Source: Cystobasidium ongulense
Lineage: Eukaryota > Basidiomycota > Cystobasidiomycetes > Cystobasidiales > Cystobasidiaceae
Assembly (NCBI GenBank): GCA_022835595.1
Contig: BQUP01000009.1
Location: forward strand, 1-64,000
Direction of reading: 5' to 3'
Length of the DNA: 64,000 bases
The translations under genes and the position numbers were made by a program. Of this stretch, positions 19,982 to 42,987 are shown piece after piece (within the stretch, counting starts at the first letter, position 1; the number at the start of each line of letters is the position of its first letter). Below the pieces are notes generated by a model. The model worked only from the letters and a program-made list of their open reading frames with translations. It was not told the DNA's origin and made no database searches.

Positions 19982-20168
19982 AATACATACAATCAAATCT
20001 ACATCAATTTCAAACAGATTTGACTTTATTATTAACAATACAATCAAATCTAATTGAAATTGATATAGATTTGACTTTGTTATTAATAACCCAGCTAGAT
20101 CTATTTGAAATTGATATAGATTGATATTTATTATTAAGAATACAGTCAAATCTATTTGATTTTGATAC
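19982..20168. repeat. AT-rich tandem repeat, period about 51 bp
   Basis: About three and a half imperfect copies, with the word CAAATCT or a close variant at about 19994, 20044, 20094 and 20147. Each full copy also has AGATTTG-like sequence downstream, so a copy can fold back on itself. Read in one frame it gives a repeated 17-residue peptide, but this lies after the stop of the Zn2Cys6 gene. It sits in the 398-bp gap between that gene and PIK1. Confidence 0.85.
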
Positions 20169-24400: not shown

Positions 24401-25681
24401 TCACACTGTATTTACAGTTGCCGGCCAACCACGCCTCTGCAACAAATCTATTGCATTGTTCTGGTATATGTTTTGCTGATCACCGCTCGACTCGAAGGCC
24501 ACAGGTAGACTTGTATCCATCATTTTCGCGAGTAACTCCACTTTGTCTAGCGTAGTGAAAGGAAAATCGCTCCCGTACAAGAGTTGTTCTGGTGTTATGT
24601 ATGGCATGATCATCTTGCACTGATTAGGCCAAGCCAGTCCCGCCATATCAAAGTAAAACTGCTTGCTCTGAAGTTTGTTGCGCACGAAATCGGGAGTGAT
24701 GCTAGCATCTACCTTTGATTCGGAGACAAGCGAGCCAAAGATGGAGAATCGATCAACAAGTGGTGCCAATGTTCCTCCACAGTGCGGGACAATGTAAGTT
24801 ATATCTGAGTACTTGCTAACAGTTCCAGACATGAACAAGTTGATGATAGCTCGTGAGGTGTCGAAAAGGAATTCCATCATTGGAGCAGGATATTGTGACA
24901 AGGGTGAGATCGTCTGGCATGCGTCCCCTGGATTTCCCGTCTTGGCGTGCCCCGTCAACATGCAAGGTGTTGTAGGATGAATAAAGACGATTGCTTTGCG
25001 CTTATTCAGTTCGCGGAATAAGGGATCAAAGTCGGGATGGCCGAGATATTTGCCGTGAGCATTTGTTTCCAATGTGACACCTGTACAAGCGTATCAGAGA
25101 CTCGCTAAGGAAAGGCAAATGGTACCGTAGATATCATGGCGGCTTACCGTCTGGATTCAGGTTATCGCAGGCGAACTTTAATTCTGCCAGACTGCCCTCA
25201 ACATCTGGCAGTAGAAGTGAGGCCCAATAACCAAAATGTTGAGGTTGACTACGCTTCAGTTCGGCAGCATATTCATTCGCTTCGCGTGTAATTTTTCGCG
25301 CGAGTGCATAATCGCCAGGAACAAGATGAGTTCCCGGGCTATCGAACAGGCGTGTTAGACGATCATCTCGACCTTGAATAGAAACAATTGTGCAAAGGTA
25401 AATCACCTTGAAATACTCAAGTAGGACTTCGTCACATTGACGGCGGTTGCCATTTCCAAGTGTGCTTCTGGCGACCATGCCTGTTAAGGTCAGTCACGAG
25501 AGTTGTGTTAATCAACCCGTCTAGTGTGATATTTGCTATTTGCCTTGCATATCCAGCTTACTGGAATTGCAGGCATGCCATCTGGTTTACTATGCCCCGT
25601 TTGCTCCAATGCCTGCTTATATGCTGGGGGAATGAAGTGTGAATGGACGTCTATTCTGGCGGGTCTCAAAGTCGGAGCCAT
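24401..25681 (-). CDS. Amidohydrolase, 6-methylsalicylate/salicylate decarboxylase-like
   Basis: Non-oxidative decarboxylase of the ACMSD/amidohydrolase-2 family. Four exons (25681-25562, 25480-25407, 25338-25148, 25080-24401) give 354 residues. Metal and active-site motifs are visible: IDVHSHFIPP at the N-terminus, FIHPTTP, the HCGG loop and GSDFPF. The GHSKPDGMPAIPAWSPEAHLEMATAVNV-type opening and SYLSISSPGTHL closely recall PatG/YanB-type 6-methylsalicylate decarboxylases, which give m-cresol. It shares a 436-bp divergent promoter with the FAH-family hydrolase. No polyketide synthase is near, so a catabolic role is more likely than toxin synthesis. The exact acid cannot be told from sequence. 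Confidence 0.88.
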
Positions 25682-26117
25682 AGCGAAGGCGGAAGTACTG
25701 GAGTCTGCTCAAGGAGTGTCGCGGCGTCCAGGTTACAGTTGCTGGAAGACCACTTTTACTGCGTATCCTTCAGTAAGGCGTTGCCGTCGGGCATGGAACT
25801 TTTTCTCAAAGACTAGGTCGGCAAGCAGCAGAATTGCGGTGGGTCGCTCTTCGGCCTTCGCGTATCCCGAAGTATCATGCATGGTATTTTGCCAATATGC
25901 TCAGCTTCTAAATGGCCTATCCGCCGATGGGTCCCACTTGACGAGGGACCGAGATTGTGGGAAAACGGCTAAGCCGAAGCAATCATACGGATGGCCTGGC
26001 CGCAGCTCCGATATCGATAGCCGGGGGGCGGTCTGCTAGCTCTCTTCTTGCAGTCAGAGGCGCCTCGCACAACTGCACCTCTGCTTCACATCAACAAGCA
26101 CAGTCTATCAGCGCAAG
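25682..26117. promoter_or_regulatory. Divergent promoter 1 of the catabolic cluster
   Basis: 436 bp between the decarboxylase-like and FAH-family genes. It contains GTCCCAC at 25931-25937, followed by GGGACC at 25945-25950 in opposite sense, which makes a short imperfect inverted pair. Confidence 0.6.
25931..25937 (-). promoter_or_regulatory. Candidate cluster operator GTGGGAC, site 1
   Basis: Seven-base word shared by the cluster promoters. On the minus strand it reads GTGGGAC, which fits five of six bases predicted for the two zinc fingers of the nearby C2H2 regulator. Role inferred, not shown. Confidence 0.4.
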
Positions 26118-27297
26118 ATGACTGCCTGGACCCGACTGGTCCGCTTCGAGGACGAGAGTGGCAAGATCTACCTGGGACAGCCCGTCGACGCTTCCCAAGA
26201 CGTCGGCCTTGCCTGTGCTGCTGGCGAGCCAGTCCAGGTGAAGCTCATCTCAGGCGACATCTACACGGGCACAGTCACTGAACAGACAAGGACCATCAAG
26301 AAGGTGAGCAATCAGCTGGGCTTGTATTCGCAGTGTCGTGAACCATTCTGACGGGACCTCTGCCCGATCACGTCTATCATAGCTGCTTGCACCTCTTAGT
26401 CGGGAGCAATGCAGCCTGATCCGCTGCCTGGGGTTAAACTACAAAGGTGAGCACCAGTTGTATGGTCATGCTGGATGGGTGATGTCCTCGCTGACGTCCT
26501 ACTCCAGCCCACGCTGCGGAAGCCGGATTCCCACTGCCAGCTGCCCCGATTCTGTTCATCAAACCAAGAACCGCTCTAGCAGGCCCAGGGGATCTCCCAG
26601 TTTCAAAAGCAGCACAAGATGACCAATTGGACTTTGAGACTGAGCTTGCTGTCGTCATTGGCAAAGACTGTCGTGATGTCTCAGAAGATCAAGCTCTCGA
26701 ATACATTCTAGGGTGAGTCCGGTGCTGATGTGTGCCAAAGTTCTGCTCCTCAAGCCTATTGCGCACTGGCTGACCACGTACATGCAGATATACCGCCTCC
26801 AACGACGTGTCCGCTAGGAAACTGCAGATGGCGACTTCTCAATGGTAAGACCTTTGCGTAGACTTATCCTAGTTTCATCACCGACACTTGTATGCCAACT
26901 ACAGGTGCTTTGGTAAAGGCCTGGACAACTCCTGCCCTATCGGTCCAGTGTTGGTCCGGCCTTCCGAGATTGACGGAGACGCTCTTGAGTTCAAGGGTGT
27001 CTTGTCTGGCGAGACCGTGCAATCTTCGAACACCTCGTACGTCATCAGTCAACATTACGTTACTATCGGTGCTCACTATGCTCTACTTGCTCCAGAGACA
27101 TGATCTTTGGTATTAAAGAGACCCTTGCCTATCTCAGTCAAGGCACTACCCTCGAAAAGGGTACAATTATACAGATGGGTACTCCTTCCGGCATCGGCTG
27201 GGCAAGGAAGCCTCAGCGCATCGTTCAGAATGGGGAAGAGATGCGCATATGGTTCAAGGGAATTGGCACATTAGTCAATAAGTTTGTATTCGAGTAG
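26118..27297 (+). CDS. Fumarylacetoacetase (FAH)-family hydrolase
   Basis: Six exons (26118-26303, 26383-26446, 26508-26712, 26788-26844, 26905-27036, 27096-27297) give 281 residues, the length of small acylpyruvases and HpcE/MhpD-type enzymes rather than full FAH (~420). Core motifs: IRCLGLNYKAHAAEAG, FIKPRTALAGPGD, metal-binding FETELAVVIGKDCRD, YTASNDVSARKLQ, GKGLDNSCPIGP and the final GTIIQMGTPSGIGWARKP. Such enzymes cleave or isomerise 2,4-dioxo acids produced by ring fission. Position in the cluster suggests it handles the ring-cleavage product, but the substrate is not determined. Confidence 0.92.
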
Positions 27298-27645
27298 AGT
27301 CAGCCTTCTCTTTGCGAACCAACAAAGGACTGCCCGTGCGACTAGCAATATGATCGCCTCGTACGCCGAAACCTTCCCGCATAAGATGTGGATGTCTACT
27401 AGATGCAGCCCTGTTCTTACACTAGTGTCTGGTAAATTGCGTATGGTTCAAAGTGTGAGCAAGTTCCAAGCGACGAAATGCAACAACCGCTACTGTTGCC
27501 ATTTATGAACTATTATTGCATTACAGGTTGACACTTTCAGTAGCCTGGGACAGTAGGTATGACAACTAAACGCAGCGTCGGAATAAGTATGTGCAGAAGC
27601 AGAAACTGCGAAACAATAGATTTGAGCTATCCCTACAGGACCCTA
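27298..27645. other. Convergent 3' region
   Basis: 348 bp between the stops of the FAH-family and transporter genes. Holds both terminators; no other signal seen. Confidence 0.5.
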
Positions 27646-29761
27646 TTAGTACTTCCATCGGAACGAGGGATGACGCCAGTCCAGATCTTCTATCTCCTTC
27701 TGTGAAAGGCCCGCCAATGCAGTGTCGACGTCGATCTTCTCACGTCGTTTGTTGTCCTGGCGTTCCCATGCCATTAAAGTAAGCCCGCTGCAAGCTATGA
27801 TTACCGCGGATGCTAGGTTGAGACCGTTTCCAACGCTGTAGAGGGTGTTAGCATGGCTCGCCCTAGCATTGTGAAAAACTTCTACGAAATTGCTCACTGG
27901 TATTGCGGGCCGTCTGTCTTGATGTATGACCAGGTGGAGACTATACCGCCAATCGCGCTGATCATGACATTGGTACCAATCGCCGCTGAGCGCGCGGTGT
28001 CCGTTACGGTGTTCACTGCGACTTGAGCGTTCGTTAAGGCACCGTAAGAGAAGAGACCTAGTGTCAGGACGAATACACCGCCGTATCGTATCTTGGCTTG
28101 TTTTGGGTCCTTTGCGTCGGTTGCCAGCAGCATGGCGTACCTGCGAATATCAGGGGCATGAGGTGGAGTGCCAAAAGTAGAAGTCCAAATACGCGGAATT
28201 TACCCAATAATAACAGGCACCGTTAATCCAATCATGTATATCATGCGCTTGTCGAGTTTCCAGCTAGTGTAGCAGAAAAAGAGGACGCCCGCAGCTCCCA
28301 CGATGTATGGAGGCTGATAGCGTGAATGTCAGTGTCAGGCAAAAGTTGGGATAGGTATGTGACTCACTACCGTCATGAGCTGTTGATGGACTGTTGTGTA
28401 GCTGGGATAGATCGTTGCTATAATCGTTGGAGCAAAAATGGCGACACCCGCAGCTGTTATGTTGTTCAAGAGGAAGATCCAGGCAATGCCGAGTGTCTAT
28501 GGATAACATCAGCGGTAAGCAAGTGACCTGGGCCAAGAAAGTGATCCCTACATTTGGATTGAACATTCCAGCCTTGATCTTAGCAGTGTCGATGCGATCT
28601 AAGACTTCTGTGGTACCGACGTGTTCAGACTTGACGCGAGCGATGGCAATGTCTAAGAAGTAAAGTAAGTCGATAGCCTACATTCTTGCTGTGTGTGTCA
28701 CCGCTCACCTTTCTCTTCTTGTGTAAGGAATTTTGCGGTAGCCGGTCTATCCGTCAATATGAAGAAAGCGACGACTGCAAGACCGACAGTCACGATCCCT
28801 TCAACTACAAAGATTTTGCGCCATGAATGGACGGAGCCAATATCGCCTGTCTTTAGGATTCCCGATGCAATGAGGCCCCCGAAAGCACCGGCCTATTATC
28901 GTGGAGTGACATTAGCAAAATAATCGGAATAGAAAGCAGTAAGTAGGCGAGCATACCAAAGGGGCTGTTACGACGTATAAAGCCAAGCGAAAAGCTAATT
29001 CTGCTTTTCGGTACCATCTGCTCATATAGTATGCGATGCCTGGCAGCATACCTGCTTCAAAAAGGCCAAGAAGGAAGCGCACGCCCATAGCTTGCGAATA
29101 TGTTTTAACGAATCCAAAGGAAATAGACATGACCTACGATGAGGGAGTCAGCCTTTTCACGTGAAGGTACTGCATGTAGCTCCCCCTTACGCCAAACATG
29201 AGGGTGCAGAAGGGAATCCATTTGCCAGGCCCGAAGTATTTGCAAGCCATGTTCGAGGGGACTTCGAAAAGGGTGTAGGAGATGACTAAAGTCACAAAGT
29301 GGTTGCCAGTGTTAGACGAAGACAAACATCATAGTTAAGGGAAATGGGGATGCTCACAAAAAATGGTCAAGAGAATGTTGAACTGAAAGCCTTTAAGACC
29401 CAGATCTCGCTCCAGACCAGCCAGACGGGCATTACCGATGTTATTGCGCTGTTGGGGGACGAAAGGTTGAGTAAAACGCTCAATACTGGCATATATAAGC
29501 ACTAACATCGATGAAGCAAAACAAATACAAAAGGGCGACTATCGGACAAATAGCCCAATCGATTTTGCGCCGGATTCGCGCTTCAACCGCTGGATCAAAA
29601 TGAACGAGAACGCAGCCATATTTATCGGTAGCTGCGTGACCTCGTTGGGCATATAGCTTTGGCGCCTCTTCGTCATTAATGGCTTCGTGCCCCAATTCTT
29701 CGTGCTTCTCGACTTCCATAGTATCGGAATGCTCGCGTGTCACCGGGATGCGAGTTGTCAT
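27646..29761 (-). CDS. MFS transporter, anion:cation symporter (allantoate permease) family
   Basis: Ten exons (29761-29507, 29448-29358, 29285-29191, 29133-28957, 28892-28709, 28652-28552, 28496-28368, 28313-28204, 28140-27898, 27835-27646) give 524 residues with about 12 membrane segments. Family marks are RRKIDWAICPIVALLYLFCFIDRNNIGNARL split across exon 1/2, YTLFEVPSNM, GVRFLLGLFEAGMLPG, LNNITAAGVAIFAPTI, SWKLDKRMIYMIG and the tail YHVGNGLNLASAVI. This family (Tna1, Dal5, Seo1) imports organic anions. Lying between catabolic enzymes and sharing a promoter with acetoacetyl-CoA synthetase, it probably imports the aromatic acid used by the cluster. That link is inference. Confidence 0.92.
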
Positions 29762-30297
29762 TATATCTTTGGTACCCAAGCAAAGTGAAGAGAAGGTGCA
29801 TTCCCCTGTAGATGCCAATAATTTGGTTGGAAAGTCTAGCAAGGACGAAGCGGGGCTCCTCTTTGTGAGTGTGGGACCTCCGACAGGGTACGGGAATAGC
29901 CTGGTGGGAACTGGCCCATGCTTCTTGCTACAGTGAGACTGCCGGCGCCTGCCTCGTTACGGCGGTATCACCTTGCTACCCCGCAGGCAATTTCGCCGGC
30001 CGGCATCTTGGACGGGACCCACACCAGCTGCAACTAGAAATGACCCACCTCGCATTGTGCGACGGTCCGTAAATCAAGCATTGATGCTAGCGAATAAGGT
30101 GCATGTACGAGGATGCAGTTGAGCGCAGCTCCAGCCAAGTTATACTGGGTAGCTGCTGACCGCACTTATTGCTAGCATTGCTTGCTACTACGAAATTGAG
30201 CAGTACACCAGTGCACATTTCGCTTCGCGCCTCCAGATCCGGAAGAGAACTTGGGAAGGGCACGTAAGGGATCTGGTGGCTAGATCAAGTGCTCAAG
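29762..30297. promoter_or_regulatory. Divergent promoter 2 of the catabolic cluster
   Basis: 536 bp between the transporter and acetoacetyl-CoA synthetase. Contains GTGGGAC at 29871-29877 and the related GGGACCCAC near 30015. A GCCGGC-rich inverted pair lies around 29940-30005. Confidence 0.6.
29871..29877 (+). promoter_or_regulatory. Candidate cluster operator GTGGGAC, site 2
   Basis: Exact match to the seven-base word found in the other cluster promoters, here on the plus strand, about 115 bp upstream of the transporter ATG. Confidence 0.4.
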
Positions 30298-33116
30298 ATG
30301 GCAGGACAGCCTTTTTGGACACCAAGCGAGTCGCAAGTCGACGCAGCCGAAATGACCAAGTTCCGCCACTTTGTTAACAAGAGGTATAACCTCTCGCTGG
30401 CGGATTACTGGGACCTCTGGCGATGGAGCACAGGCAATCCAACCGAGATGAATGACTTTTGGACTGCTGTATGGGACTTTACTGGAATCCTTGGTGATCA
30501 AGGACCTTCGCCTGTGAGTTGTGTCGTATTTTCATGTTCTTTGCGATTGCTGCTCAGACGCGTGTCACCTCCTACTTTCTCGACAACCAGCTCTTCAATG
30601 CAAGCGTACCTATCTACGAGACCAGAAAATTCTGCACAAATGCTCAAGTTAACTGGGCGGAGAACATGCTGTTGGGACACTCCCTGGCCCGGTCAGACAA
30701 GCACACCGCCATAATCTCGCTGATCGAGCCGCTTGGAGAGTCGCAGGCAGAACCAGCATTTGTGCGCAGCCTCACCTTCGAGGAGCTATACATTGAGGTT
30801 GCACAGGCTGCAAGTGCTCTCAGAAAACTGGGAGTAAAGCAAGGCGACAGAGTCGCTGCTGTCAGTTCCAATAATGCCGGTGAGTTCGACCTGGAGCCAC
30901 AGCACTGGCAGCGTTGACCAGGCTGACAGATACTTTTCTCTTAACGCGTACAGAAGCGATTGTTCTGGTATTAGCTACCACTGCTATTGGAGCGATATGG
31001 AGTTCTGTCGCTCCTGAATTCGGCGTTCCTTCTATCTTGGAACGATTCGTACAATTACGGCCAAAAGTGCTGCTAGTATGCGACCGCTATCGAGCTGCAG
31101 GAAAGGAGCACGACGTTCTTCCGAAGATGCAAGAAGTCGCCGAAGCTCTGAAGCGTGTCGGTCTGAATACTATGATTGTAGTAGGCCAGCTTGCTAAGGA
31201 TCGTCGTCCTCGAGACGCGTTCCTTCAGGTGGATGGTGTTCTATCAGTATCCTGGCCAGACTTCCTAGATAAGACTGCTACGAATCTTACTTTCGTTAGA
31301 GTGCTTGCCAATACACCTCTCTGGGTGTTGTACTCGAGTGGAACAAGTGAGCATTTCTATTTCAGTCTCGCACTTGCAGTACGTCTTTGCTGAGCGACAG
31401 AGTATAATCCAGCTGGAAAACCCAAAGCCATTATTCACAGCCACCTTGGGATGATCTTCGCCATCAAGCAGGGAGGGCCCTTGCATTCCGCTTTAGAAAA
31501 GCACGATGTTCATCTACAAATAAGCACCACTGGCTGGATGATGTGGAACCATATGGTGAACCATCTCTGTCTCGGTATCACTTTGCTCGTGTACGATGGC
31601 AATCCGCTAGTACCGAACAGGCTTATCCTGTTTAACTTCGTTGGACGCTACAGGTAAACCTTCCAATATTCTACATTGATTACCTGTCACTATAGCTGAG
31701 CCTGGCATAATCAGGGTCACATCCTTGTCACTTTCTCCCCGCTATCTCCAAGTGCTTCTACAGGGCAATATTCACCCAAGTCAAAGCCATGATTGTTCTT
31801 CGCTCAAGTCCATAACAAGTGCAGGTTCACCTCTCAAGCCGGAGTTGTACGACTATATTAGGCAGTCAATTGGCAATGTATATATTCAGAATGTTTCCGG
31901 TACGTTTGCCATACTATTCCCCACTTGCAGTCAATTGGCTCTCTCTGACTTTCCGGCTGTCTGATCTGTAGGTGGGACAGATGTTTGCGCAGGTCCGCGA
32001 CCTTTGGGTATAACTCATGTGCGCCAAGTGAGCTAACTGTTCGATTATCTTCAGGGCTAGTTGGTGGTTGTCCAGTAAGTCAGGATACTGGCATCGTCAG
32101 CTCTAGCAAATGGAGCTCAGCACCCCTCTTCGCAGATACTTCCAATATACGCTGGCAAAATCCAATGCGCTTGGCTCGGTGTCGCCCTGCAGGCATATGG
32201 TGATGATGGGCAACCTGCTGCTTCCGGGGAAGGCGATCTGGTCATTACCAAACCTCTGCCATTTATGCCTCTGGGTTTCCTAGGAGATGATGACAAGGAC
32301 ACAAAGTTGAAGGATGCATATTTCAATCAGTATTCCAACACCTGCGTCTGGAATCACTCAGATCATAGTACGTAAAGTCTCTTCATGGTAAATTCAGGGC
32401 AAAGCTGACTGCTCTTGCTAGTTGCTATTGATAACAATGGCGGTATAACCATGCTTGGCAGAAGCGATGGCGTGCTCAACCCGCAAGGCGTAAGATTCGG
32501 CAGTGCCGAATTGTATGCGGTCGTGGAGGAGATGAAAGACGAGTAAGTGCAGTTGAAAGGACACATCGGCCCCTAGGCTGGGCTTATAGCGCTCTTGTGT
32601 TTAGGATTGATGATTGTATAGCTGTCGGTCAAAAAACTCCAGAGGGAGATGAGAGAGTGTGAGAGCGAAATCGACTGAGCCGAAAAGTAGCACTTGCTGA
32701 ATTACATTACAGCATTCTATTCGTCAAGCCATTGTCACCTCAGGGTCTTACAGGCAGTTTGATCCGACAAATTCAGGATGCCATTGCTACCAAGCTTTCG
32801 CGACGCCACGTTCCCGCAAGGATTCTCGAATGCCCCGAAATCCCGGTGAGCTCTAACTGAAATTTGCCTCTGCAGACTCCGCTGACAATACCACCTCCAA
32901 AGTATACGGTAAACGGTAAACGAGTTGAAGTAGCAGTCAAGAAGATTATCAATGGCGCATCTCCCAAGTCACTCAATACGAGGTGCGTGGTGCCTCAATG
33001 TGCTCTATATATCCTGTACTGATTGATACCATAGTGGACTGGCCAACCCAAGCGCATTGCGATGGTTCGTGAATCGTCCAGAGCTGTCGTTCACCTCACT
33101 GCAAGCCAAACTCTAG
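30298..33116 (+). CDS. AACS: Acetoacetyl-CoA synthetase
   Basis: Activates acetoacetate to acetoacetyl-CoA with ATP. Thirteen exons (30298-30513, 30558-30879, 30954-31346, 31413-31653, 31715-31899, 31972-31992, 32055-32074, 32136-32367, 32422-32542, 32605-32658, 32713-32845, 32903-32982, 33035-33116) give 699 residues. ANL-superfamily motifs are intact: P-loop [79 protein letters not shown] and the C-terminal [15 protein letters not shown]. Two consecutive exons are only 21 and 20 nt and code the adenine-binding loop. The 44-nt first intron is the shortest in the window. In this cluster it may salvage acetoacetate released by the FAH-family step. Confidence 0.95.
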
Positions 33117-33352
33117 ACGTGTCATGCTTTGATATAGTAACAACTTTAACAATCGTCCCATGTATAATAAGCGGAGACAAGTCAGCATGCTTCTGCGATC
33201 TATCAGTGCTCTGCTTCATTAGTGAGGGATGTTCTGACATTATTTTGGTCATACGCATTTCTCTTGTTATTACGCTACTAAGACCATTTCATCAACAACA
33301 ACCGCCCTGGAAATACAATGTTGCAGTATTAAACATAACTCCGCAAGATTGC

Positions 33353-34718
33353 CTACGCTACAGCTTGTACCTGTGGCGCTGGCTTGGGAGCCTGGAGCTG
33401 GGGCTCTGCATCCATGAATCCTTCAGCTGTGAAGAAGGCTCATCAGATCAGGGAACGCCAGTTTGTTGGACAGATCACGACTTACGAACGGCCGGGCCCC
33501 AGATAGCGAGAGCTTCGTCAGAAGCTGGTAGGGTTGAAGTGTCTGTATGGCAATTGACTTGATCACCGTCCGCGTAATGCTCTATCATGAAATTTTCGGG
33601 CATGAACCTGCACAATAATTATCAGTATCGGCGAGTTTGCCCTCGAGAGGCTAGCATACTTACCAATAATCGAACACCTGCGATCCAAGAATATGCCTTC
33701 CAAGTCCCCATGCCGGTGTATAGCCTTTTTGCTTGAGCCACTGCAAGTGAGAGAAGAGGTAGGTTAGAACAGCACGTTAAGCCTCAATTAGCAAGCAAGC
33801 CTTACGTCGTGCCCGATGGCTTGGACGTCCGGGTCGTGGACCTCGAATGAGCAATGATGAGGGCCAGTTTTCTTGGAGTTCATGGAAAAGAAGAAAGTGT
33901 GGTGATCCACCCATTCTTCTTCGCGGTCGACGTGCATGAATGCTGCCACTACCTTGCCGTCCGGCGCAGTCAGTAGGTCTGTGGCTTTCAGGTTGAAGTA
34001 CTTGGTAAAGAAGTCATAGGTTTTGTCGAAATCAGATACCAGTCTGAGCGGACATGAAAGAAAGGATTAGTTTATCGCTTGCCTAGGCAATATAGTGCGC
34101 CAGGGTAGACGAGAAAGGCGAAGTGCACGTGATAAGCAGGCTTACAAGCCGAAATGTCCTAGCTTGAACACAGGACTGGGCCCTTGCTTGAATCGTCTAA
34201 ATTCTCCCAGGCGAGGCTTGACAACTGGATAGTTCACCACAGGAACGTTGCTATCTTCAGGCACTCGTTTTGCGTCCAATCCCCAGACCAAATTGCAAGG
34301 TATTCCATCCGGATCTCTGAAGGTGACGATAAATCCTCCTGCAGGTCCGTCGTCTGGTAAGACGGCTGAAGCACCGGGAATGAGCTGGGATGCGCGCTCG
34401 AGGTCTTCTCGAGTTTCTACAAGGAAAGTGCCACCAAGGAACTCGCTTTTGTCGCCCTGTGAGTGCAGGACAGAGAGAAAAAGAAGCAAGGGAGTAAGTG
34501 GTCTGCCTCGAGTACATATTGAAATAACTCTTGCGACCCACAGCTTCAGCAACAAAGACGTAGGGATCAGGACCCTCGCCCGCATAGTATCGTTTGCCAC
34601 CTTTCTCCTCCAAGAAGCGAATGCCAAAGTCGGCGAGGAAGGTGTGCTGCTTCTCAATGTCGGCGAAGCGGTAGCGCATGTGCGCGAGGCGTACGATGCG
34701 GATAGGTGGTGGAGTCAT
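33353..34718 (-). CDS. VOC-fold extradiol-type ring-cleavage dioxygenase
   Basis: Six exons (34718-34542, 34456-34146, 34043-33806, 33740-33664, 33607-33486, 33426-33353) give 332 residues with two glyoxalase/bleomycin-resistance modules. The C-terminal module keeps a 2-His-1-carboxylate iron set: LGHFGL, GPHHCSFEV and MIEHYADGD, as in catechol 2,3- and 2,3-dihydroxybiphenyl dioxygenases. The conserved ending AIWGPAVPEGFM appears only after a 59-nt last intron is removed. The 102-nt intron 2 is long for this window. The N-terminal module (RIVRLAHMRYRFAD, GTFLVETREDLE, FRDPDGIPCNLVWG) lacks the full metal set, as usual. Hydroxyphenylpyruvate dioxygenase is unlikely given length and motifs. The natural diphenol is unknown. 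Confidence 0.87.
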
Positions 34719-35284
34719 TGTGCAGGCTGGTCACGCGTCGGCTGCTGCGGTGGAAAGAGGATCCGGGATGTCGCTCGACAAGCTGAACGGTTGCAGGAAT
34801 GAGCTGGAGGTGGATGCAGCGTCGGGATCTGACAGCGAGCAGCTTTGTTCTATGCGATAGTTACCTCAGAGGAGAGGCAACCTCTCTCTCCGCTGTGTGG
34901 CCCCGCTGCTGAGGCGTCGCCTTCTCTCTGCCTGCGCTCGCCGGCTCGTCTCTTTACCCACCCATCCATCCACCATTCTGCCCATCGTTCAGCAGCGCTC
35001 AGCGTCCCACAGCTTGTCCCACACCCAACACCTGGCGAGCAATGAGGGCCCCCGCCTTATCTGCCGCACGCTGCAATGCAGTCCAATGCGTGGTAACATG
35101 CTACTTTGGGGCGAGCCAACAAACAACGGTCCAGTGCTGCTGCTGCTGCTGCCCCACGCGTGCATCCCACCAGCGCTGGGCAAACTGCACGACCAAGCTT
35201 GACATCCATCACCCAGATTGCGAGCAGGCTTTCGCTAATATCACCTAGCACTACCGCAAGTCCAGCAAGCCTATCATCCTCGCG
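34719..35284. promoter_or_regulatory. Divergent promoter 3 of the catabolic cluster
   Basis: 566 bp between the dioxygenase and hydroxylase genes. It has two GTCCCAC words 12 bp apart (35004-35010, 35016-35022), a perfect short inverted repeat GAGAGG-CAA-CCTCTC at 34872-34886 and a CTG repeat near 35138-35150. Confidence 0.6.
35004..35022 (-). promoter_or_regulatory. Candidate cluster operator, tandem sites 3 and 4
   Basis: Two exact GTCCCAC words (GTGGGAC on the minus strand) spaced 12 bp start to start, about one helical turn, so two bound regulators would lie on nearly the same face of the DNA. Confidence 0.45.
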
Positions 35285-37293
35285 ATGTATCCAACCGAAG
35301 CCCAAGTCATAGTGGTTGGTGCTGGGCCGGTCGGGCTCTTTACTGCACTCCTGCTGAAAGACCGCGGAGTCGATGTGGTCGTCGTCGAGCGTCAGAAAGC
35401 ACTATATCCCCTACCGCGTGCAGTAGCATTCGATCATGAATCAAGACGTCTGATGGAAAGCATCGGCTTGGGTCGTCAGCTAGACGCTGTTCTCCAAACC
35501 ATAGTTTCGCCCATTGGCGGCGAAGAAAGTACCAATTTTAATTGGAGGGACAAGAATCATCGATGTAAGTTACTTCAGCCTGTTGAGCTCTGTATGACTA
35601 TACTATGCCCGCTGAAGATGTTCACTGAACCTAATCAATAGTGATTGTCGACCTCAAGTGGGAAGATCCTACAAGGTCAGGCTTTCCTGTGGCTATGGGC
35701 TTCAGTCAACCTCAGCTGGAGACCTTGCTCGAGACAGCTGTATTGGAACGGGGTATTCCTCTCATCCGAGGTTACGGTGCGATAGATTTCTTCTTATTTC
35801 TATTGTCTCCGTCAAAGCTGATGCACGTGTGTGGCAACTTTTAGCCCTTAGGAAAATCGAGCACAGACAAGACAAAGTCACTGGACTGTTTGAATACGTA
35901 CCGGCCAAAAATGGAGCAACAGTCAATGGTCATGGCTCGCCGAATCTCGATATACAAGCAGCATACTTAGTGGGTTGCGATGGAGCCAATTCTGCCGTTC
36001 GCAACTTGATGGAAATAACGTGCACCGACTTGGGTTTCGAAAACGACTGGCTCGTGCTCGATTTGGTGGGTTGAAAAGCTTCGAGATTGGCAAACCTTGC
36101 TTACGTATTTCTGCCATCTTCCCACAGCTTCTTAAGGATGGCTATATCCCTGCAGCTTTGCAAAAGCTGGGCAATGCACAAATCTGTGACCCGGAAAGAC
36201 CAACTACAGCTGTCTTTGGCGGTGCTGGGCGGCGGCGCTTTGAATTTATGCGCCTACCGGGAGAAGACAGGGAGTCGTTGCTGTCCGACACGATGATGTG
36301 GAGCTTACTGAAAAAGTGGGGTTACAACGAGGTGAGGCTCTGGGCGCTGGTATACGCTTTCTATGAATGTAGAACAAATGCTAAGAGCAGTCTATCAGTG
36401 TAATTGCTATCTAGAGCGCAAAGTCATCTACACCTTCAAGGCAAGGTGGGCCAACGAATTTTATAAGCAACGGGTTCTACTTGGTGGGTCCAGCCTCCTG
36501 AACATTGCTAGCTTTTTTAAAGATGCTGAATGACACCTGTTCTGTGGCTATAGCGGGAGATGCACTACATCTGATGCCTCCTTTCATCGGCCAAGGCCTT
36601 AATTCAGGTTTTCGCGATGCGGCTGCGATAGCCTGGAGGCTGCCTTTGATTCTTTCCGGTTTGGGAGAACCTACACCTCTGTTGAGATCGTTCCAGGTTG
36701 AACGATTACAGCATCTTGAGAAGATCACAAGGCATTGCATTCTCCTCGGGGAAGCCATCTGCGAGACCGACCCCAAGAAGTCAGCGGAATTGCATCGTGT
36801 ATTGAGAGCCAATCGTATGTCTTTCAATCCGAGCAGCGTGGAGCCTCTAGGCTTACAGAGGAACTGTCCTTCTTATTTAGCTCCGCCAAAAGGCTTTGAT
36901 CCACCCTTGGGGAAGCCCGGGTTGCTGACAGATCAGGAAGAGTCCGGCCGCCTCTCCTTACATCGGCAATTGAAGATCGGCGAAGATGACTCCTCATGGT
37001 ACGACCAGATCTACGGTTATGGTTGGCGCCTTGTTACTATGAGCCCTGTTCCCCTTGAAAGTCTGCTCAATGACGAGGCGCGTCACCTATTTATCGACCG
37101 CTTATCGGGCAAGTGTATCAATATAAAACCAGAAGAAGATATCACCGGTGAATACTCTGAGTGGTTCGAAAAGGATTTGGGCCAAGACCACGTAGTGCTG
37201 ATTCGGCCTGACTTCTATAACTTTGGGCATGCACATGTTTCAGAAGTTAATACACTGGTTGGGCAGCTCCGGTCAAAGATGAGATCATTATGA
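35285..37293 (+). CDS. FAD-dependent aromatic hydroxylase (MhpA/PheA family)
   Basis: Class A flavoprotein monooxygenase using NAD(P)H and O2 to hydroxylate a phenolic ring. Six exons (35285-35564, 35642-35776, 35845-36065, 36128-36331, 36399-36483, 36554-37293) give 554 residues. The FAD dinucleotide fold is at the start ([20 protein letters not shown]), the DG motif is [11 protein letters not shown], and the ribityl-binding [19 protein letters not shown] is restored by the 70-nt fifth intron. [16 protein letters not shown] matches the MhpA (3-hydroxyphenylpropionate hydroxylase) pattern. It is divergent from the dioxygenase, so it likely makes the diphenol that enzyme cleaves. No signal peptide; probably cytosolic. 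Confidence 0.92.
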
Positions 37294-37436
37294 AAAGTGT
37301 TGTACGTTAGAGTTTTAAGTCGTTATTAAGTACAAGGGTGCATGCTTTGCTGCAATATGGATGTGTATACGGTACAATGCAAAATAACGTTACAGAAGAA
37401 GGATTGAAAGCTGGCGAATCTAGAACAGATACACTA

Positions 37437-38855
37437 CTAACTTGCAAACTGCTGCTTTAGACTGGAGGCTCCGTTGGATGCCCCAAAGCCGTCAAGGTTT
37501 GTGCCTCTGCTGAGTGACTCGTATTTCTTGTAGCCGTCAATAATCTCTTCGTGAGATTGAATGATTAGCTCGTAGCCGTCGTCCTGGTGAGATTGATGAG
37601 TGAATGCACAAAAAAGAATAGACCTGGCAAACCTGACTCACTCCCAAGGCAAAGCGCATAGGTAGCTCTTCTTGCTGCACTAGCTGAATAATTCGCTGAA
37701 CTCCCTTGCGAGTGTCTCCAGGCTCCTGCCCTGCTCCTTCCGAAAGCATGTTTATCCACCCGTGTGCGCTATCATATCCGTCAATGTAATTTGCGGGCTT
37801 CTTGAAATTCGTCGGGGATCCAACTGCTGTAGCGAAGGCGCCGGGCTGCCAAACGCGGTAGAGAAAGGGGATTAGTAGTGTTGATGCCGTCTGCTGTTGC
37901 TTGAGTAAGTGACTTTGCATTTACCTGAACAGACACGCAACGTATATTGAAAGGGCGCAGTTCACGGCTCCATACATCGCTGATACCTGAAGACGCGGAT
38001 TTCATATGTATGTGTTGCCGTGTGTTACAGATTAGAGAAGTGACTTACTATCTAGCGCTGCTTTTGAAGCACAATAGATGGCAGAACCAGCATCTGGTTG
38101 GACATGTTAGGGCTGGATTTGACTCGCTGAAAGTTGGGAACTGAGAACTTACTGTTCAAGATGCCACCCTACGAGTAAATGATCCAAAGGTGAGCGATAG
38201 TAATACAAGAGCTTGGATCGTAGCCTTCGAATGCGCTTACCATCGAACTGATATTGACAATAGTTCCACGTCTTTTTTGACGGAAGTAAGGAAGAAAGGC
38301 ATTCGTGAGGTTGATGACTTTGGCACAATGTATAAAATTAGGTAATTCCGGTCTTCACGAGATTATATAGACTATACGCACCGCCAAAGAAGTTTGTCGC
38401 GAATTGGGCCATTCTTTGCTCATGCGAAGTCTCCTCTAGTGCACCAGATTGACAAAATCCAGCATTCGAAACGAGAACCTAGGTCGCAGTTGGGAAAATA
38501 TGCAAGCTTGTCAGTTGATGAAGCCAAGGCTTCCAAGTCTTGATGTCGTAGGCATACATCCAGCTGACCACTGAATGCAGAAATGTTAGCGGTGCCTCCG
38601 AGTTCAACTTTCTGCAGTATGTACGCACTAGACACCGATGGCTTCTCTTGCAAAGGCATCGAGCGCTTCTGGAGAGTCAGTTACATCCAACTGTAGCAGC
38701 GCTGCTCCTTCTTGCTCCAAGTCCCGAATAGCTTCCAGCTTGCGTGCAGTAGCTATTACCCTGTATCCGTGTCCTAAGGCTGCCAGCACGAGGTCGCGTC
38801 CGAAGCCAGAGCTGCATCCGCTGATGAGCCACACGGCGCCAGGAGTGATGGTCAT
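37437..38855 (-). CDS. Short-chain dehydrogenase/reductase, classical type
   Basis: Nine exons (38855-38629, 38570-38558, 38478-38382, 38317-38241, 38168-38153, 38093-38049, 37986-37925, 37845-37642, 37583-37437) give 295 residues. Cofactor loop SGCSSGFGRD, NAG in VLVSNAGFC, structural NISSM and the catalytic YCASKAAL are all present, the last only after splicing. Two exons are tiny, 13 and 16 nt. The cofactor loop followed by a basic ATARKLE suggests NADP(H). It follows the C2H2 regulator on the same strand and is back to back with the hydroxylase 3' end. Its place in the pathway is unclear; it may reduce or oxidise a ring-cleavage aldehyde or keto group. Confidence 0.9.
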
Positions 38856-39338
38856 GTTGGGACAAGAGAGGTGCGATGTAACTTGTAAGTATGCAGTGGG
38901 CTGGCTCGTATACTCTGCTATTGTTCTGGTCAACGAGAGAATGTCGTGCGTTACATCTGCGCTTTGTGCTGGGTGGGTCCGCTGGAGAGTCCCACGTTGG
39001 CCAAATGCGCGCCCACGAGAGAGTCCCAGCCGTGGTCTCGACGCAGCGGCAGACGGACTCCAAGTTTCTACCAGTAACACGCTGAATCACAGGCTATGAG
39101 TGCGCATGACTCAGCGGCATGTACCTGTTATACTGTAACAGACTGAACCAGCAGGGCCACCGAAGTCGAGCCAGGCAAAAAGGTGATGTGGCGGATTGCC
39201 CATGACTTCGCTGCGCTCCAACCTGAGAGTCGGAAGCCATGCACGAGTACAGTTACAACAACAGCACGTCCAACCGACCCGCGGCATCAACACAACTAAT
39301 ATCCCAAGTTTATGGTAGCAAGAATATCGCCCATCGCG
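38856..39338. promoter_or_regulatory. Promoter of the dehydrogenase gene
   Basis: 483 bp between the C2H2 regulator stop and the dehydrogenase ATG. Contains GTCCCAC at 38989-38995, about 135 bp upstream of the ATG. Confidence 0.55.
38989..38995 (-). promoter_or_regulatory. Candidate cluster operator, site 5
   Basis: Exact GTCCCAC word in the dehydrogenase promoter, matching those in the three divergent promoters. Confidence 0.4.
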
Positions 39339-42300
39339 TCACCAATCCCCCATGGCGTGCAACGTCTCAGCAAGCGCGTTGTAGTCGACAGCAGACTGTG
39401 GCACAGACAACAGCGAGATACTCAGCACCAGAAAGTCCAGGCGTGACAATGGCTTGTCTTCATCTGTCGTTGGGGAATCATGGCTCACCTCACATAGTCC
39501 ATTTGCTTTTCCTTCCCCTCGATGAACTTTTCCAGTTTCCAACGACAACAGTTACTTCGTATCCACTTCTCTGCCAGTCGTGGACGGCCATCGACGACAA
39601 ACTCAAAGCCTGCATTAGGGCACGTCCCGAACATGATTGGAGGCGACGTCCCTGGTTTCGAGCATTCCGCCAGGACCTCAGCGAAGTGTTCCCAGTCAGT
39701 GGCATCGGTTGCATCAAACATTTCAATAGACCCATCTAAAGCCTCGTTGAAGGCGATAAAGCACAGCAAGACGAGTGTAGCTTGAAAGATAGTCCTGTTC
39801 AATCACGAAGGACAGAGACTTTGATCAGCCGAATGATGCACAATGAACAAGCATAGGCAAGAAGAGCTCTTGAAACCCGTCGCAGCGAGGGTGACAGCGG
39901 AGCGTATCTGCAGGATTCACCCTTGCTACGCTTGGCTGAACAAACACGGGCCATCTTATGCACCATGTATCACTATGCTCACCTTGGTACTATGAAGGCG
40001 AGGTCCCTGAGATCAGCAGCATGATGCAGGATGTGCGCGCAATGTAGCGTAGCTAACCGAGCCTCCGGCGAAGCAACCCATTTCTTCACAGCTTCTACTG
40101 CATGTGGCTGTGGAATGCCTTCTCTACCTGCCACTTCTTCGATTTGGTCTAGTCTAGCCAGCCTGGCTAGGCAGCAATAGTGCCACATAACTTTCAGGAT
40201 TTGAGGTTGATTGCTGCTACTTCTGGATGAAGGAGCTTCTACGCCTTGGCGGCGGTCCGAGTCTGTTATACCAAATCTAGCACCGAGGTCCAGCATGTCG
40301 CGGTAAAAGAGCGCAATATCGGTGAAGCTAGAAACAAAGCTCGGCTCTGAGCGGCATAGCTCCTTCAACTGCAGTATATTCACAATCTTCTGGGCCATCA
40401 CACTCATTGGGAAGAGTGTGTCTGCCGTTGGAACGACCCGGAAACCGGTAGCCGGAGGAGTACGTAGGGAATTGCTAGGTGAGCCACCACTCAGGCACAG
40501 TAAAAGCCATTTCCAGCTTGACGCGTCTTCTGCTTCAAATAGTGCATCGCTCGACTGGTCGAGAGCCGATAACTGAACTGGAACAAGCCGGGGTAGCAGA
40601 CTGTACGTCGCTGCGTCTGCAGCATGCAGAGTCAAGCCTAATGCCACCCTCCGGAGCATCTCGCGTCGCGCCCATTCTTGCCATCGAGCCTCGAGGGCTT
40701 CTTCATCCAAGTTGGCGACGTTATCGTACGTAATTGTGTTCTGGTCAATGAGCTTGAAAAGCCCTGCACGTCTTGCAAAAGTGCACAAGCAACCGTGAAA
40801 AGACTCGGCAGTGAACATATGCTTTGGTTCTCCATAAAGGAAACTGAAGCATTGGCCCAGGAGTCCACTGAGAGTCATGGCCACTCTGGCATCCTCTGTC
40901 GCCATTCTTGAATCGCGCTGGAAAAAAGCATTCCCCTCTCAGCATGTATCAAAACGTTGTCTGGATAAAGACTACCGACCGAAAAGACAATCACGTGGTG
41001 GAGTCTTTCGTAGATCCATAAGCCTCTTTCGCGGGCCGCCTGCGTCCCCATGAATATGCAGCCGATTGAGCACATGCTGAGCAGAAGAAGAGGCGAAGAT
41101 TGATGACGGCTAAAGGTGGCTTTATGTAAGATGGGGAAGGTGGGGTGGAAATCTCGGAAATAGAGATGTAGACAACTGTCCAGAAATTTGATGGAAGGAA
41201 TTGCAGTTTGCTCTTCTTTGGCCCAATGCTTGCGCGCCATCTTGTCCTGCAAAACATGTTTGCACTTTAGTGGGAGTTTTCAGCACACCTATCAGTAAGC
41301 GAATCTCTTACCACTGATGTTTCAACACTCAATTCCTCGATTATCTGCTCTGGGGACGTTATGTCTGGTCTGGGAAGGTCTACGTTGCCGTGCTCTGGCG
41401 CTTGCATCGAGTTGAGCCATGTGTCGGTCGTCAAGACGCGGTGGAGGACCTTGCGTCTCGGGGTCCCGGTAGAAACTGCACCATTTTCCTCGTAGTAGGT
41501 ACTCACAGGACCTGAAGATACTGGTACGGAAGAACTCGGTGGACGTTGGTCCTTTAATGCAGTTGGAAAGCTGGTGCCTGACGAGCTTCCAAGTTGTATG
41601 TTGGGATGACCCGGTGGGGCTCGGAACAGCTCTTGTGACAGGTTGACCTGTAAATTTTGCTGTCTATCTGTCGAATTTTGCCCAGTTTCTGTGGCGATGT
41701 TAGAGGTGGACATGCCTTCGAAAGTATAACTAGCCGCTGCAGGGCTCGATTTCCAAAGATCCTCGAATTGGAGGCCAAAGGGGTACAGCTTATTGAGACC
41801 GTTGTCATTTGCGCCGTTATTTGCCGAGGGCGTACTAAAGTTGAGTGGAGCGCTCTGATTGAAGTTATTGGTCGTACCTGTACCCGAAGATGTTATGCCG
41901 TTAGATTCGAGAGGTTCGACTGAAAAATTATCCCATCCACTGGCCGAAGCCACAGGCTGATGTGCGTTTCCCAACAATTCGCGCGAAAACACCATTTCTA
42001 GGGCATTCTCTGCGGCATGGGAGCCGCCTTCGAGTGTGAGCCAAGAGTCGATGCTTGCGTCAAGTGACACTGCTGCAGCGGGATAAGGTTGCGGGAAGGC
42101 GGCCATGTACGAAGCTATTGGTATAGTTTGTGGGGCGCTGTGTGAGCTGTTGCTGTAGGCCGAGGTCGTCTGCGGCATAGCAAAGTCTGCGAAGGCGATA
42201 TATTTTAGTAAGATATCGTGTACTGCACTACAAGTTGTACATTGAAGATGCAGGAGATCTTACCCGGAACTCCGAACTGCGATGATGGTATGAAAGCATT

Positions 42301-42987
42301 CGAGGCCTGTCCATTCGTATTGCGATTCTCTTTGTTGCTGTGGTTGCCGGCCTTGAGCTCGGCCTGGCTAGACAATTGCAAGGACTGTTGATGCTGTGTC
42401 TTTTGGCCTACTTGAAGGTGATCCTCAATCCCGAACAAGTGGCTAAAGGCGGGGTGGAACAAACTATTCTCATCTATCTGGCTTCGAGGAGTGGTCGCAG
42501 TCTCGCCGCTTAATGTGATATTTTCGGAAGCGCCGTCCGTCCTGCGTTTCTTCGACTGGTTTCCTGCAGCAGAGGCCGATGTGTCTTCATTTCCCCCTGC
42601 TGGTAAAGGGTCTGATAATGACGGCGAGACCGCCATCTCGTCGCGGCTGCCGCTGTCAGAATGGACAGCTCGCTCATGCCTTTGCAGGGCATCTGTACGA
42701 GCGAATGCTTTATCACATTTGCTGCAGCTGAATGGTCTCTCGTCACCATGTGTTCGGACGTGTCGGATGAGATGGGCGAGCTTTATAAAGCCGCGCCCGC
42801 AGACCTCGCACGTCTTGATGCTCTTGACCCTCTTTGACACCTTGGGCTGTGCTGATATCTCTGCTTGACGCGCTGCGGTCGACGAGTGCTCGTCGCCCAT
42901 GCTCGGTGGCCCATGCGCTGCTGGTGTGGGAGTCTTTGGCAAGAAGCAGCAGACCGAATTGCGGGAAGTGTGGGACTCCAGATTCAT
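39339..42987 (-). CDS. C2H2 zinc-finger transcription factor with fungal-specific domain
   Basis: Six exons (42987-42264, 42186-41312, 41246-40980, 40917-39983, 39794-39494, 39395-39339) give 1052 residues. Two C2H2 fingers lie near residues 60-110 (CEVCGRGFIKLAHLIRHVRTH and CSKCDKAFARTDALQRHERAVH). A long serine/glutamine-rich linker follows. The fungal-specific factor domain is seen in SIKFLDSCLHLYFRDFHPTFPILHKATF, SIGCIFMGTQAARERGLWIYERLHH and LSGLLGQCFSFLYGEPKHM. The last two exons restore the usual ending (TIFQATLVLLCF..., AEKWIRSN..., NALAETLHAMGDW). The 188-nt intron before them is long but its phase fits. At the edge of the catabolic cluster, it is the natural candidate for its regulator. 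An ATG at 42900 is an alternative start. Confidence 0.88.
42970..42976 (+). promoter_or_regulatory. Candidate operator copy at the start of the C2H2 gene
   Basis: GTGGGAC lies within codons 4 to 6 of the regulator itself (11 bp inside the ATG on the minus strand). If the later ATG at 42900 is used, it would be in the leader, where it could serve autoregulation. Confidence 0.25.

What the first reader, a model, noticed from the sequence alone, without database searches (positions are those of the whole stretch)
24401..42987. Putative aromatic-acid catabolic gene cluster with its own regulator
Eight adjacent genes make a coherent route: organic-anion uptake, decarboxylation of a salicylate-type acid, FAD hydroxylation to a diphenol, extradiol-type ring cleavage, FAH-family hydrolysis and acetoacetate activation, plus a dehydrogenase and a C2H2 regulator. 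Meta-cleavage style routes are rare and poorly described in fungi, which mostly use ortho cleavage. No polyketide synthase is nearby, so this is unlikely to be a patulin-type biosynthetic cluster.
Basis: partly seen in the sequence, partly recalled or inferred. Interest (0 to 1): 0.8.

Follow-up and report, generated by a model that had tools for sequence, protein, structure and literature searches.

The report
Yeast gene cluster for eating orsellinate
Eight neighbouring genes near a chromosome end of a basidiomycete yeast look like a complete, self-regulated route that breaks down a methylated phenolic acid, most likely orsellinic acid (the building block of many lichen compounds), into pyruvate and acetoacetate, a ring-opening route described in bacteria but for which I found no published fungal gene set.

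Summary
The eight genes are real and end exactly at the stated coordinates: decarboxylase, FAH-type hydrolase, MFS carrier, acetoacetate-CoA ligase, type I extradiol (VOC) dioxygenase, FAD hydroxylase, SDR, C2H2/Fungal_trans regulator, 24-43 kb from a telomere-like contig end. The catabolic reading holds, but the likely substrate is orsellinate, not salicylate or 6-methylsalicylate: only that route (via orcinol and 2,3,5-trihydroxytoluene) needs one hydroxylation, gives the FAH enzyme an acylpyruvate, and yields acetoacetate for the ligase, which passes curated cut-offs. Bacterial clusters combine the same functions: Streptomyces FAH-VOC-FMO-acetoacetate ligase, Pseudonocardia ligase-decarboxylase beside VOC-FAH, Cupriavidus decarboxylase-FMO-FAH-VOC, a lichen isolate FAH-VOC-FMO-MFS. 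The word GTGGGAC sits in all three divergent promoters and the SDR promoter: 5 against a shuffle mean of 0.22 (word chosen after looking). Against: the ligase is in only 1 of 80 bacterial VOC loci, and the genome has four more ligases of its family. No enzyme has been assayed; the substrate is inferred. Verdict: new variant of a known kind, the bacterial orcinol meta-pathway; no fungal gene set found in ten searches.

The parts
24401..25681 (-). g1, Amidohydro_2 decarboxylase (6-methylsalicylate/orsellinate type), exons 25562-25681, 25407-25480, 25148-25338, 24401-25080
   Evidence: Pfam PF04909 71.4 bits; homologs named 6-methylsalicylate decarboxylase, best Cystobasidium minutum 79%; AlphaFold model of that homolog matches 2f6k, then 2,6-dihydroxybenzoate decarboxylase; DxHxH, H, H, D columns conserved in 28-29 of 29 rows, the rest gaps
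26118..27297 (+). g2, FAH-superfamily hydrolase, acylpyruvase role proposed, 6 exons
   Evidence: PF01557 216 bits; best solved relatives 8sky (FAH-family protein), 1gtt (isomerase/decarboxylase of 4-hydroxyphenylacetate degradation), 8gsr (diketo-deoxyrhamnonate hydrolase); acylpyruvase FAHD1 at 103.8 bits; HxxE at residues 85-88
27646..29761 (-). g3, MFS carrier, 10 exons
   Evidence: PF07690 114.9 bits; weak solved relatives: D-galactonate transporter (E 5e-5) and an antiseptic resistance carrier
30298..33116 (+). g4, acetoacetate-CoA ligase, 13 exons
   Evidence: over both NCBIfam cut-offs; best PDB match 4wd1 acetoacetate-CoA ligase, 373 bits vs 144 for the next, acetyl-CoA synthetase
33353..34718 (-). 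g5, type I extradiol (VOC) ring-cleavage dioxygenase, 6 exons
   Evidence: PF00903; homologs named trihydroxytoluene oxygenase; H160, H225/H226, E277 in 20 of 20 rows; model of a 71% homolog matches 3b59 (called glyoxalase), then AphC, dihydroxybiphenyl, catechol 2,3- and homoprotocatechuate 2,3-dioxygenases; no other match in the genome
35285..37293 (+). g6, FAD hydroxylase of the MhpA / resorcinol-hydroxylase kind, 7 exons
   Evidence: NCBIfam PRK06183.1-3 400 bits vs cut-off 390; homologs include one named resorcinol 4-hydroxylase (P0133); only one weak match elsewhere in the genome
37437..38855 (-). g7, classical SDR, 9 exons, role unassigned
   Evidence: PF00106 146 bits; none of the 25 listed of 214 NCBIfam matches passes its cut-off
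39339..42987 (-). g8, regulator with two C2H2 fingers and Fungal_trans domain, 7 exons
   Evidence: PF00096 and PF04082
25682..26117 (.). divergent promoter g1/g2; GTGGGAC at 25931
29762..30297 (.). divergent promoter g3/g4; GTGGGAC at 29871
34719..35284 (.). divergent promoter g5/g6; paired TGTGGGAC at 35004-35023, one of two such pairs (0-30 bases apart) in 19.77 Mb; the other lies in an open frame on C4
38989..38995 (-). GTGGGAC in the SDR promoter
42970..42976 (+). GTGGGAC just inside the predicted start of g8

Best explanation
The cluster is a complete inducible route for orsellinic acid (2,4-dihydroxy-6-methylbenzoate), as free acid or released from depsides. Proposed steps: g3 imports the anion; g1 decarboxylates it to orcinol; g6 hydroxylates orcinol to 2,3,5-trihydroxytoluene; g5 opens the ring between the methyl-bearing and the neighbouring hydroxyl carbon, giving 2,4,6-trioxoheptanoate (acetoacetylpyruvate); g2, acting as an acylpyruvase, cuts it to pyruvate and acetoacetate; g4 makes acetoacetyl-CoA, hence two acetyl-CoA. 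g8 is proposed to act through TGTGGGAC sites in the three divergent promoters. g7 may handle a quinone or aldehyde side product (weak). Shown by sequence: the enzyme families, intact catalytic residues, gene order, and recurrence of much of the set in bacteria. Inferred: the substrate, the cleavage position, the products and the regulator's target.
For: g4 is a curated-level acetoacetate-CoA ligase, which points to acetoacetate as end product. Extradiol fold and metal triad. g2's best-scoring NCBIfam model is a 2,4-diketo-acid hydrolase, below its cut-off (170.9 vs 500). FMO relatives include a named resorcinol hydroxylase. Bacterial clusters with the same functions: Streptomyces FAH-VOC-FMO-acetoacetate ligase; Pseudonocardia acetoacetate ligase-decarboxylase plus VOC-FAH with an apparent two-component oxygenase; Cupriavidus FAH-FMO-decarboxylase-VOC-FAH; Hydrocarboniphaga FMO-VOC-acetoacetate ligase-SDR with FAH nearby; lichen isolate Paraburkholderia D15 FAH-VOC-FMO-porin-MFS. 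In 80 VOC loci FAH lies within 10 kb in 59 and FMO in 37. Trihydroxytoluene and 2,4,6-trioxoheptanoate stand in the abbreviation list of a paper on a Burkholderia symbiont (PMC8571283, passages). Fungal co-location: VOC and FMO of Cutaneotrichosporon HIS471 have tags 0600100 and 0600090 on contigs of equal length.
Against: No enzyme or growth datum for this organism. Acetoacetate ligase occurs in only 1 of 80 bacterial VOC loci and the decarboxylase in 7 of 80. The bacterial VOC most like g5 and the FMO most like g6 are mostly not in the same clusters: beside the closest plasmid FMOs the VOC scores below 60 to 172 bits, against 178-231 in the 80 loci, and the FMOs of the VOC loci fall outside the FMO branch that holds the fungi. 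Some VOC-FMO-FAH clusters carry another acyl-CoA synthetase. A Rhodococcus plasmid joins decarboxylase and FMO homologs to a classical aldolase-type meta pathway. 'Trihydroxytoluene oxygenase' is a name given by sources, not a test. g6 formally falls in a 3-hydroxyphenylpropionate hydroxylase model. Four other ligases of g4's family lie elsewhere in the genome, two of them also over the equivalog cut-off, so the family call alone does not show a dedicated acetoacetate role. Closest solved relatives of g2 include an isomerase/decarboxylase. The SDR has no clear job.
Confidence: 0.6

Rival explanations
1. Same chemistry on a different or broader set of 6-alkyl-2,4-dihydroxybenzoates or 5-alkylresorcinols (lichen or plant lipids): the FAH enzyme releases pyruvate and a longer 3-oxo acid, which g4 activates.
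For: Bacterial relatives pair VOC-FMO-FAH with other acyl-CoA synthetases; the expanded ligase family in this genome leaves room for other 3-oxo acids (inference).
Against: g4 scores best as an acetoacetate enzyme; no thiolase or beta-oxidation gene among the eight.
Confidence: 0.15
2. 6-Methylsalicylate or salicylate route: decarboxylation to m-cresol or phenol, hydroxylation to a (methyl)catechol, meta cleavage, FAH-type hydratase.
For: g1 homologs are named 6-methylsalicylate decarboxylase; a Rhodococcus plasmid couples decarboxylase and FMO homologs to an aldolase-type meta pathway.
Against: Those routes give acetate or aldehyde plus pyruvate and need an aldolase and an acetaldehyde dehydrogenase (recalled), not among the eight genes; they leave g4 unexplained.
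Confidence: 0.12
3. Resorcylate to resorcinol to hydroxyquinol with extradiol cleavage to pyruvate and malonate semialdehyde, which the SDR would reduce.
For: FMO homologs sit near hydroxyquinol-type genes in some bacteria (maleylacetate reductase; intradiol dioxygenase) and include a named resorcinol hydroxylase; would give the SDR a job.
Against: No acetoacetate formed, so g4 has no role.
Confidence: 0.08
4. A biosynthetic or detoxification cluster rather than growth catabolism.
For: PatG-like decarboxylases occur in polyketide clusters (recalled; a homolog is named macB).
Against: No polyketide synthase found in the genome search; ring cleavage, FAH hydrolase and CoA ligase lead to central metabolites.
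Confidence: 0.05

Closest known systems
Orcinol meta-cleavage pathway of Pseudomonas putida (Chapman & Ribbons 1976)
   Same: Proposed intermediates orcinol, 2,3,5-trihydroxytoluene and 2,4,6-trioxoheptanoate. The paper is not held; I know its content from recall and its title from the reference list of PMC8571283.
   Different: Here in a fungus, with an upstream decarboxylase, and with an acetoacetate-CoA ligase pointing to a pyruvate + acetoacetate exit; as I recall, acetate and pyruvate were reported in the bacterium.
Mhq pathway (methylhydroquinone oxygenases) of Burkholderia NF100 and symbiont SFA1
   Same: Trihydroxytoluene and 2,4,6-trioxoheptanoate are listed with this pathway (PMC8571283, passages).
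   Different: Entry from a nitrophenol insecticide via methylhydroquinone; no decarboxylase step mentioned in the passages seen.
Trihydroxytoluene oxygenase of 2,4-dinitrotoluene degradation (DntD, name recalled)
   Same: Same enzyme name as carried by 21 of 120 listed g5 homologs; an extradiol enzyme (reference title seen in PMC5716253). That the fungal names derive from it is inference.
   Different: Acts on 2,4,5-trihydroxytoluene, whose product gives no acetoacetate (recalled chemistry). Sequence not compared.
Orsellinic acid decarboxylase of Arthrobacter sp. K8 (Kino 2020)
   Same: Same activity as proposed for g1; cited among metal-dependent (de)carboxylases (passage and reference in PMC10176493; paper not read).
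   Different: Sequence not compared here.
Fungal gentisate and homogentisate routes
   Same: FAH-family last step; homogentisate also ends in acetoacetate (recalled).
   Different: Ring cleavage there is by cupin dioxygenases (recalled), not VOC.

Membership tests
Acetoacetate-CoA ligase (g4) | Score over curated cut-offs TIGR01217 / PRK03584 | tested here: met
   604.9 vs 520.9 and 668 vs 639 bits; nearest PDB 4wd1
Type I extradiol (VOC) dioxygenase (g5) | Two-domain VOC fold with 2-His-1-Glu metal site | tested here: met
   fold matches on a 71% homolog; residues conserved 20 of 20
Catechol 2,3-, 2,3-dihydroxybiphenyl or HpaD equivalogs (g5) | NCBIfam equivalog cut-offs | tested here: not met
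   38.4, 49.7 and 55.8 bits vs 320.2, 366.45 and 321.4
Trihydroxytoluene oxygenase (g5) | Cleaves a trihydroxytoluene | not testable with these tools
   only names of homologs given by sources
MhpA-like hydroxylase subfamily (g6) | PRK06183.1-3 cut-off | tested here: met
   400 vs 390 bits
Resorcinol/orcinol hydroxylase (g6) | ortho-hydroxylation of a resorcinol | tested here: inconclusive
   tree puts the fungal clade beside 10 bacterial rows including one so named (91/82 support)
Amidohydrolase aromatic-acid decarboxylase (g1) | Amidohydro_2 domain with metal ligands | tested here: met
Orsellinate decarboxylase (g1) | Substrate orsellinate | not testable with these tools
   no assay; K8 sequence not compared
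FAH superfamily (g2) | FAA_hydrolase domain with HxxE pair | tested here: met
Acylpyruvase (g2) | A curated hydrolase equivalog cut-off | tested here: not met
   none of the 7 NCBIfam matches passes its cut-off; activity not testable here
Orcinol meta-pathway gene set | hydroxylase, extradiol dioxygenase and FAH-type hydrolase together | tested here: met
   g6, g5, g2 in one cluster

The most novel reading that the evidence does not exclude
Basidiomycete yeasts carry a portable, subtelomeric, self-regulated orsellinate meta-cleavage cluster with an acetoacetate exit, shared patchily between Cystobasidiomycetes and Tremellomycetes and paralleled by bacterial operons (one in a lichen isolate), which lets them feed on the orcinol-type depsides of lichens and moulds.
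Probability: 0.4. Interest if true: 0.78.

Novelty: new variant of a known kind. Interest (0 to 1): 0.62.

Why it matters
A 2025 review of Aspergillus niger aromatic pathways says extradiol dioxygenases are less common in fungi, and the words orcinol and orsellin- do not occur in its main text (PMC12388069, passages and word counts). Here a whole gene set fits one such route step by step, with a testable end product and a testable regulator site. It gives a function hypothesis for a dioxygenase family with many fungal members (about 95 named rows among the 120 listed of 658), and suggests how yeasts, perhaps lichen-associated ones, could use orcinol-type polyketides as food.

Tried and rejected
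A second cluster on C4 was suspected because the only other TGTGGGAC pair lies 18 kb from an amidohydrolase exon; the 40 kb looked at show no tblastn match to g1-g8 at E 1e-3, and the pair is in an open frame. Polyketide synthase: one place only, read as a fatty-acid synthase subunit. A second VOC copy: no match; a second FMO copy: one weak match. tRNA and Rfam: none. Literature: ten searches listed no fungal orcinol or orsellinate catabolic gene cluster that I could see in titles and abstracts; only open-licence PMC papers are covered and the longer lists were cut. Fungal decarboxylase-VOC co-location: of 11 species I found by eye in both top-120 listings, 2 share a contig length (Stylonectria g422/g423, Talaromyces proteolyticus); 9 do not (other strains or paralogs may be the reason). 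In one search the finder mis-spliced g4 and g6; corrected by reading. In one search the tree script stopped on a label error; repeated. From the FMO tree I left out P0130 and P0131 (partial) and took about every fourth bacterial hit plus nine FMOs from VOC loci and plasmids; the 15 bacterial VOC rows were picked by hand.
Full report
OBSERVATION. The left neighbour has a PI3/PI4-kinase domain. The right neighbour (44098-45397) reads to me as a mitochondrial insertase of the OXA1 kind, but Pfam found nothing on its second exon. The window is the start of contig C9 and opens with about 290 bases of degenerate CCCCTAA/CCCTAA repeat, so the cluster is probably subtelomeric.

ORGANISM. The genome is 19.77 Mb in 19 contigs. 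The best homologs of g6 and g1 are in Cystobasidium minutum (76% and 79%; lineage), both with a longest contig of 3,317,164 bases, hence very likely on the same contig. g5 is nearest to Saitozyma (71%), another subphylum. A Cystobasidiomycete yeast is the likeliest host, not proven.

ENZYMES. g4 passes curated acetoacetate-CoA ligase cut-offs and matches the solved enzyme 4wd1 at 373 bits against 144 for the next, acetyl-CoA synthetase. Four other genes of this family lie on C5, C6, C7 and C12; with rough models, C6 and C7 pass the equivalog cut-off (553.8 and 585.1 vs 520.9), C5 (model cut short) and C12 do not (470 and 423). g5 keeps the His/His/Glu positions in 20 of 20 aligned rows; a model of a 71% homolog (P0001; pLDDT 83) matches 3b59 and then extradiol dioxygenases. 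g1 has the amidohydrolase decarboxylase metal residues, and a model of the 79% homolog matches 2f6k and 2,6-dihydroxybenzoate decarboxylase best. g2 is an FAH-type enzyme whose best NCBIfam model is a 2,4-diketo-acid hydrolase, below cut-off; solved relatives include an isomerase/decarboxylase, a diketo-acid hydrolase and FAHD1. g6 belongs to the MhpA-like hydroxylases and its fungal clade lies beside bacterial proteins including one named resorcinol 4-hydroxylase.

WHY ORSELLINATE. This argument is from pathway chemistry (established knowledge plus inference). Extradiol cleavage of 2,3,5-trihydroxytoluene next to the methyl group gives 2,4,6-trioxoheptanoate. As an acylpyruvate (acyl = acetoacetyl) it is a natural substrate for an acylpyruvase, which cuts C3-C4 to give pyruvate and acetoacetate. 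That uses exactly one decarboxylase, one hydroxylase, one dioxygenase, one FAH enzyme and one acetoacetate ligase. Salicylate, 6-methylsalicylate and plain resorcylates leave the ligase idle. Trihydroxytoluene and 2,4,6-trioxoheptanoate appear together in the abbreviation list of PMC8571283 (passages only), whose references include Chapman & Ribbons (not held).

COMPARATIVE TEST. In these 80 loci, up to 10 kb each side and with the bit thresholds set in the script, homologs were: FAH 59, FMO 37, decarboxylase 7, acetoacetate ligase 1; for comparison SDR 3 and MFS 0. The FAH open frame is within 500 bp in 50 of the 59 (median gap 4 bp between stop-to-stop frames). Of 20 listed plasmid dioxygenase rows (102 records) I opened 6: FAH in 6, FMO in 2, decarboxylase in 1, acetoacetate ligase in 0. 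Of 20 listed FMO rows (600 records) I opened 10, the rest being further records of two of the same species: 6 of 10 have both FAH and VOC (in Streptomyces NBC_00015 the VOC by annotation only); 4 of 10 do not. Of 20 listed decarboxylase rows (140 records) I opened 10: 5 of 10 have FAH and VOC in the stretch (two of the VOC by annotation only, two places from closely similar Paraburkholderia, and in NBC_00015 the decarboxylase lies about 21 kb from the ligase). A sixth, Rhodococcus, has annotated VOC and FAH but an aldolase-type pathway. Four have neither. Acetoacetate ligase is in 2 of these 10. Against a single ancestral set: beside the plasmid FMOs closest to g6 the VOC scores below 60 to 172 bits, against 178-231 in the 80 loci, and the nine FMOs taken from VOC loci and plasmids fall outside the branch that holds the fungi. 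The resemblance is of function and grouping, not of one conserved operon.

EVOLUTION. The 11 rows counted as fungal in the FMO tree form one clade (100/100) next to bacterial rows, from few fungi: the window, Cystobasidium, Cutaneotrichosporon, Microbotryomycetes, Meredithblackwellia, Pyricularia, and one unnamed row. The 24 dioxygenase rows counted as fungal (four unnamed) form one clade (100/99). The window's dioxygenase groups with Saitozyma, Cutaneotrichosporon and an unnamed row (100/99), not with the Cyphobasidiales row that should be nearer by species. With tags 0600090 and 0600100 for FMO and VOC in Cutaneotrichosporon HIS471, this suggests a conserved pair, perhaps near a chromosome end if tags count from the end, and possible transfer; paralogy and loss are not excluded.

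REGULATION. GTGGGAC occurs 8 times in the window, which is not unusual for the window as a whole (5.21 expected; 17 of 100 shuffles reach 8), but 7 of the 8 lie within the cluster. Five are in the three divergent promoters and the SDR promoter, against a mean of 0.22 in 300 shuffles (0 of 300 reach 5); GTGGGA occurs 8 times there against 0.97 (largest count 4, in 4 of 300). The word was picked because it was shared, so these numbers are biased; the number of 7-mers shared by the four regions (2) is reached by 14 of 300 shuffles. A tight TGTGGGAC pair occurs at two places in the genome, one here and one in an open frame on C4. From recalled recognition rules the two fingers of g8 could read G-N-G-G-G-N; this was not tested.

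LIMITS. No function is assayed. The SDR is unassigned. The genome also has intradiol dioxygenase matches on C4 and C5, so ordinary ortho cleavage is probably present too.

Noticed in passing
window 1-293: Contig begins with a degenerate telomere-like repeat with variable numbers of C and A (AACCCCTAA, AACCCTA), not a uniform array.
   Followed up: no
window 19987-20167: 51-bp tandem repeat, 3.5 copies, upstream of the PI4-kinase-like gene, overlapping the end of an open frame that reads as low complexity.
   Followed up: no
window 3886-6426: MYST acetyltransferase gene (zf-MYST and MOZ_SAS matches).
   Followed up: no
window 7693-9423: bZIP transcription factor gene near the contig end.
   Followed up: no
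G000 C5, C6, C7, C12 (L020-L023): Four more genes of the acetoacetate-CoA ligase family besides g4, two over the equivalog cut-off: a family expansion in a 19.8 Mb genome.
   Followed up: partly
L107, L108 and 35 of the 80 loci L026-L105: Bacterial loci with FMO, VOC and FAH homologs together (35 of 80), some with another acyl-CoA synthetase: possibly alkylresorcinol or related catabolic operons.
   Followed up: partly
L117 (Pseudonocardia pBCI1-2; source Apterostigma dentigerum, a fungus-growing ant by recall): Plasmid carries decarboxylase, acetoacetate ligase, VOC, FAH and an apparent two-component oxygenase.
   Followed up: partly
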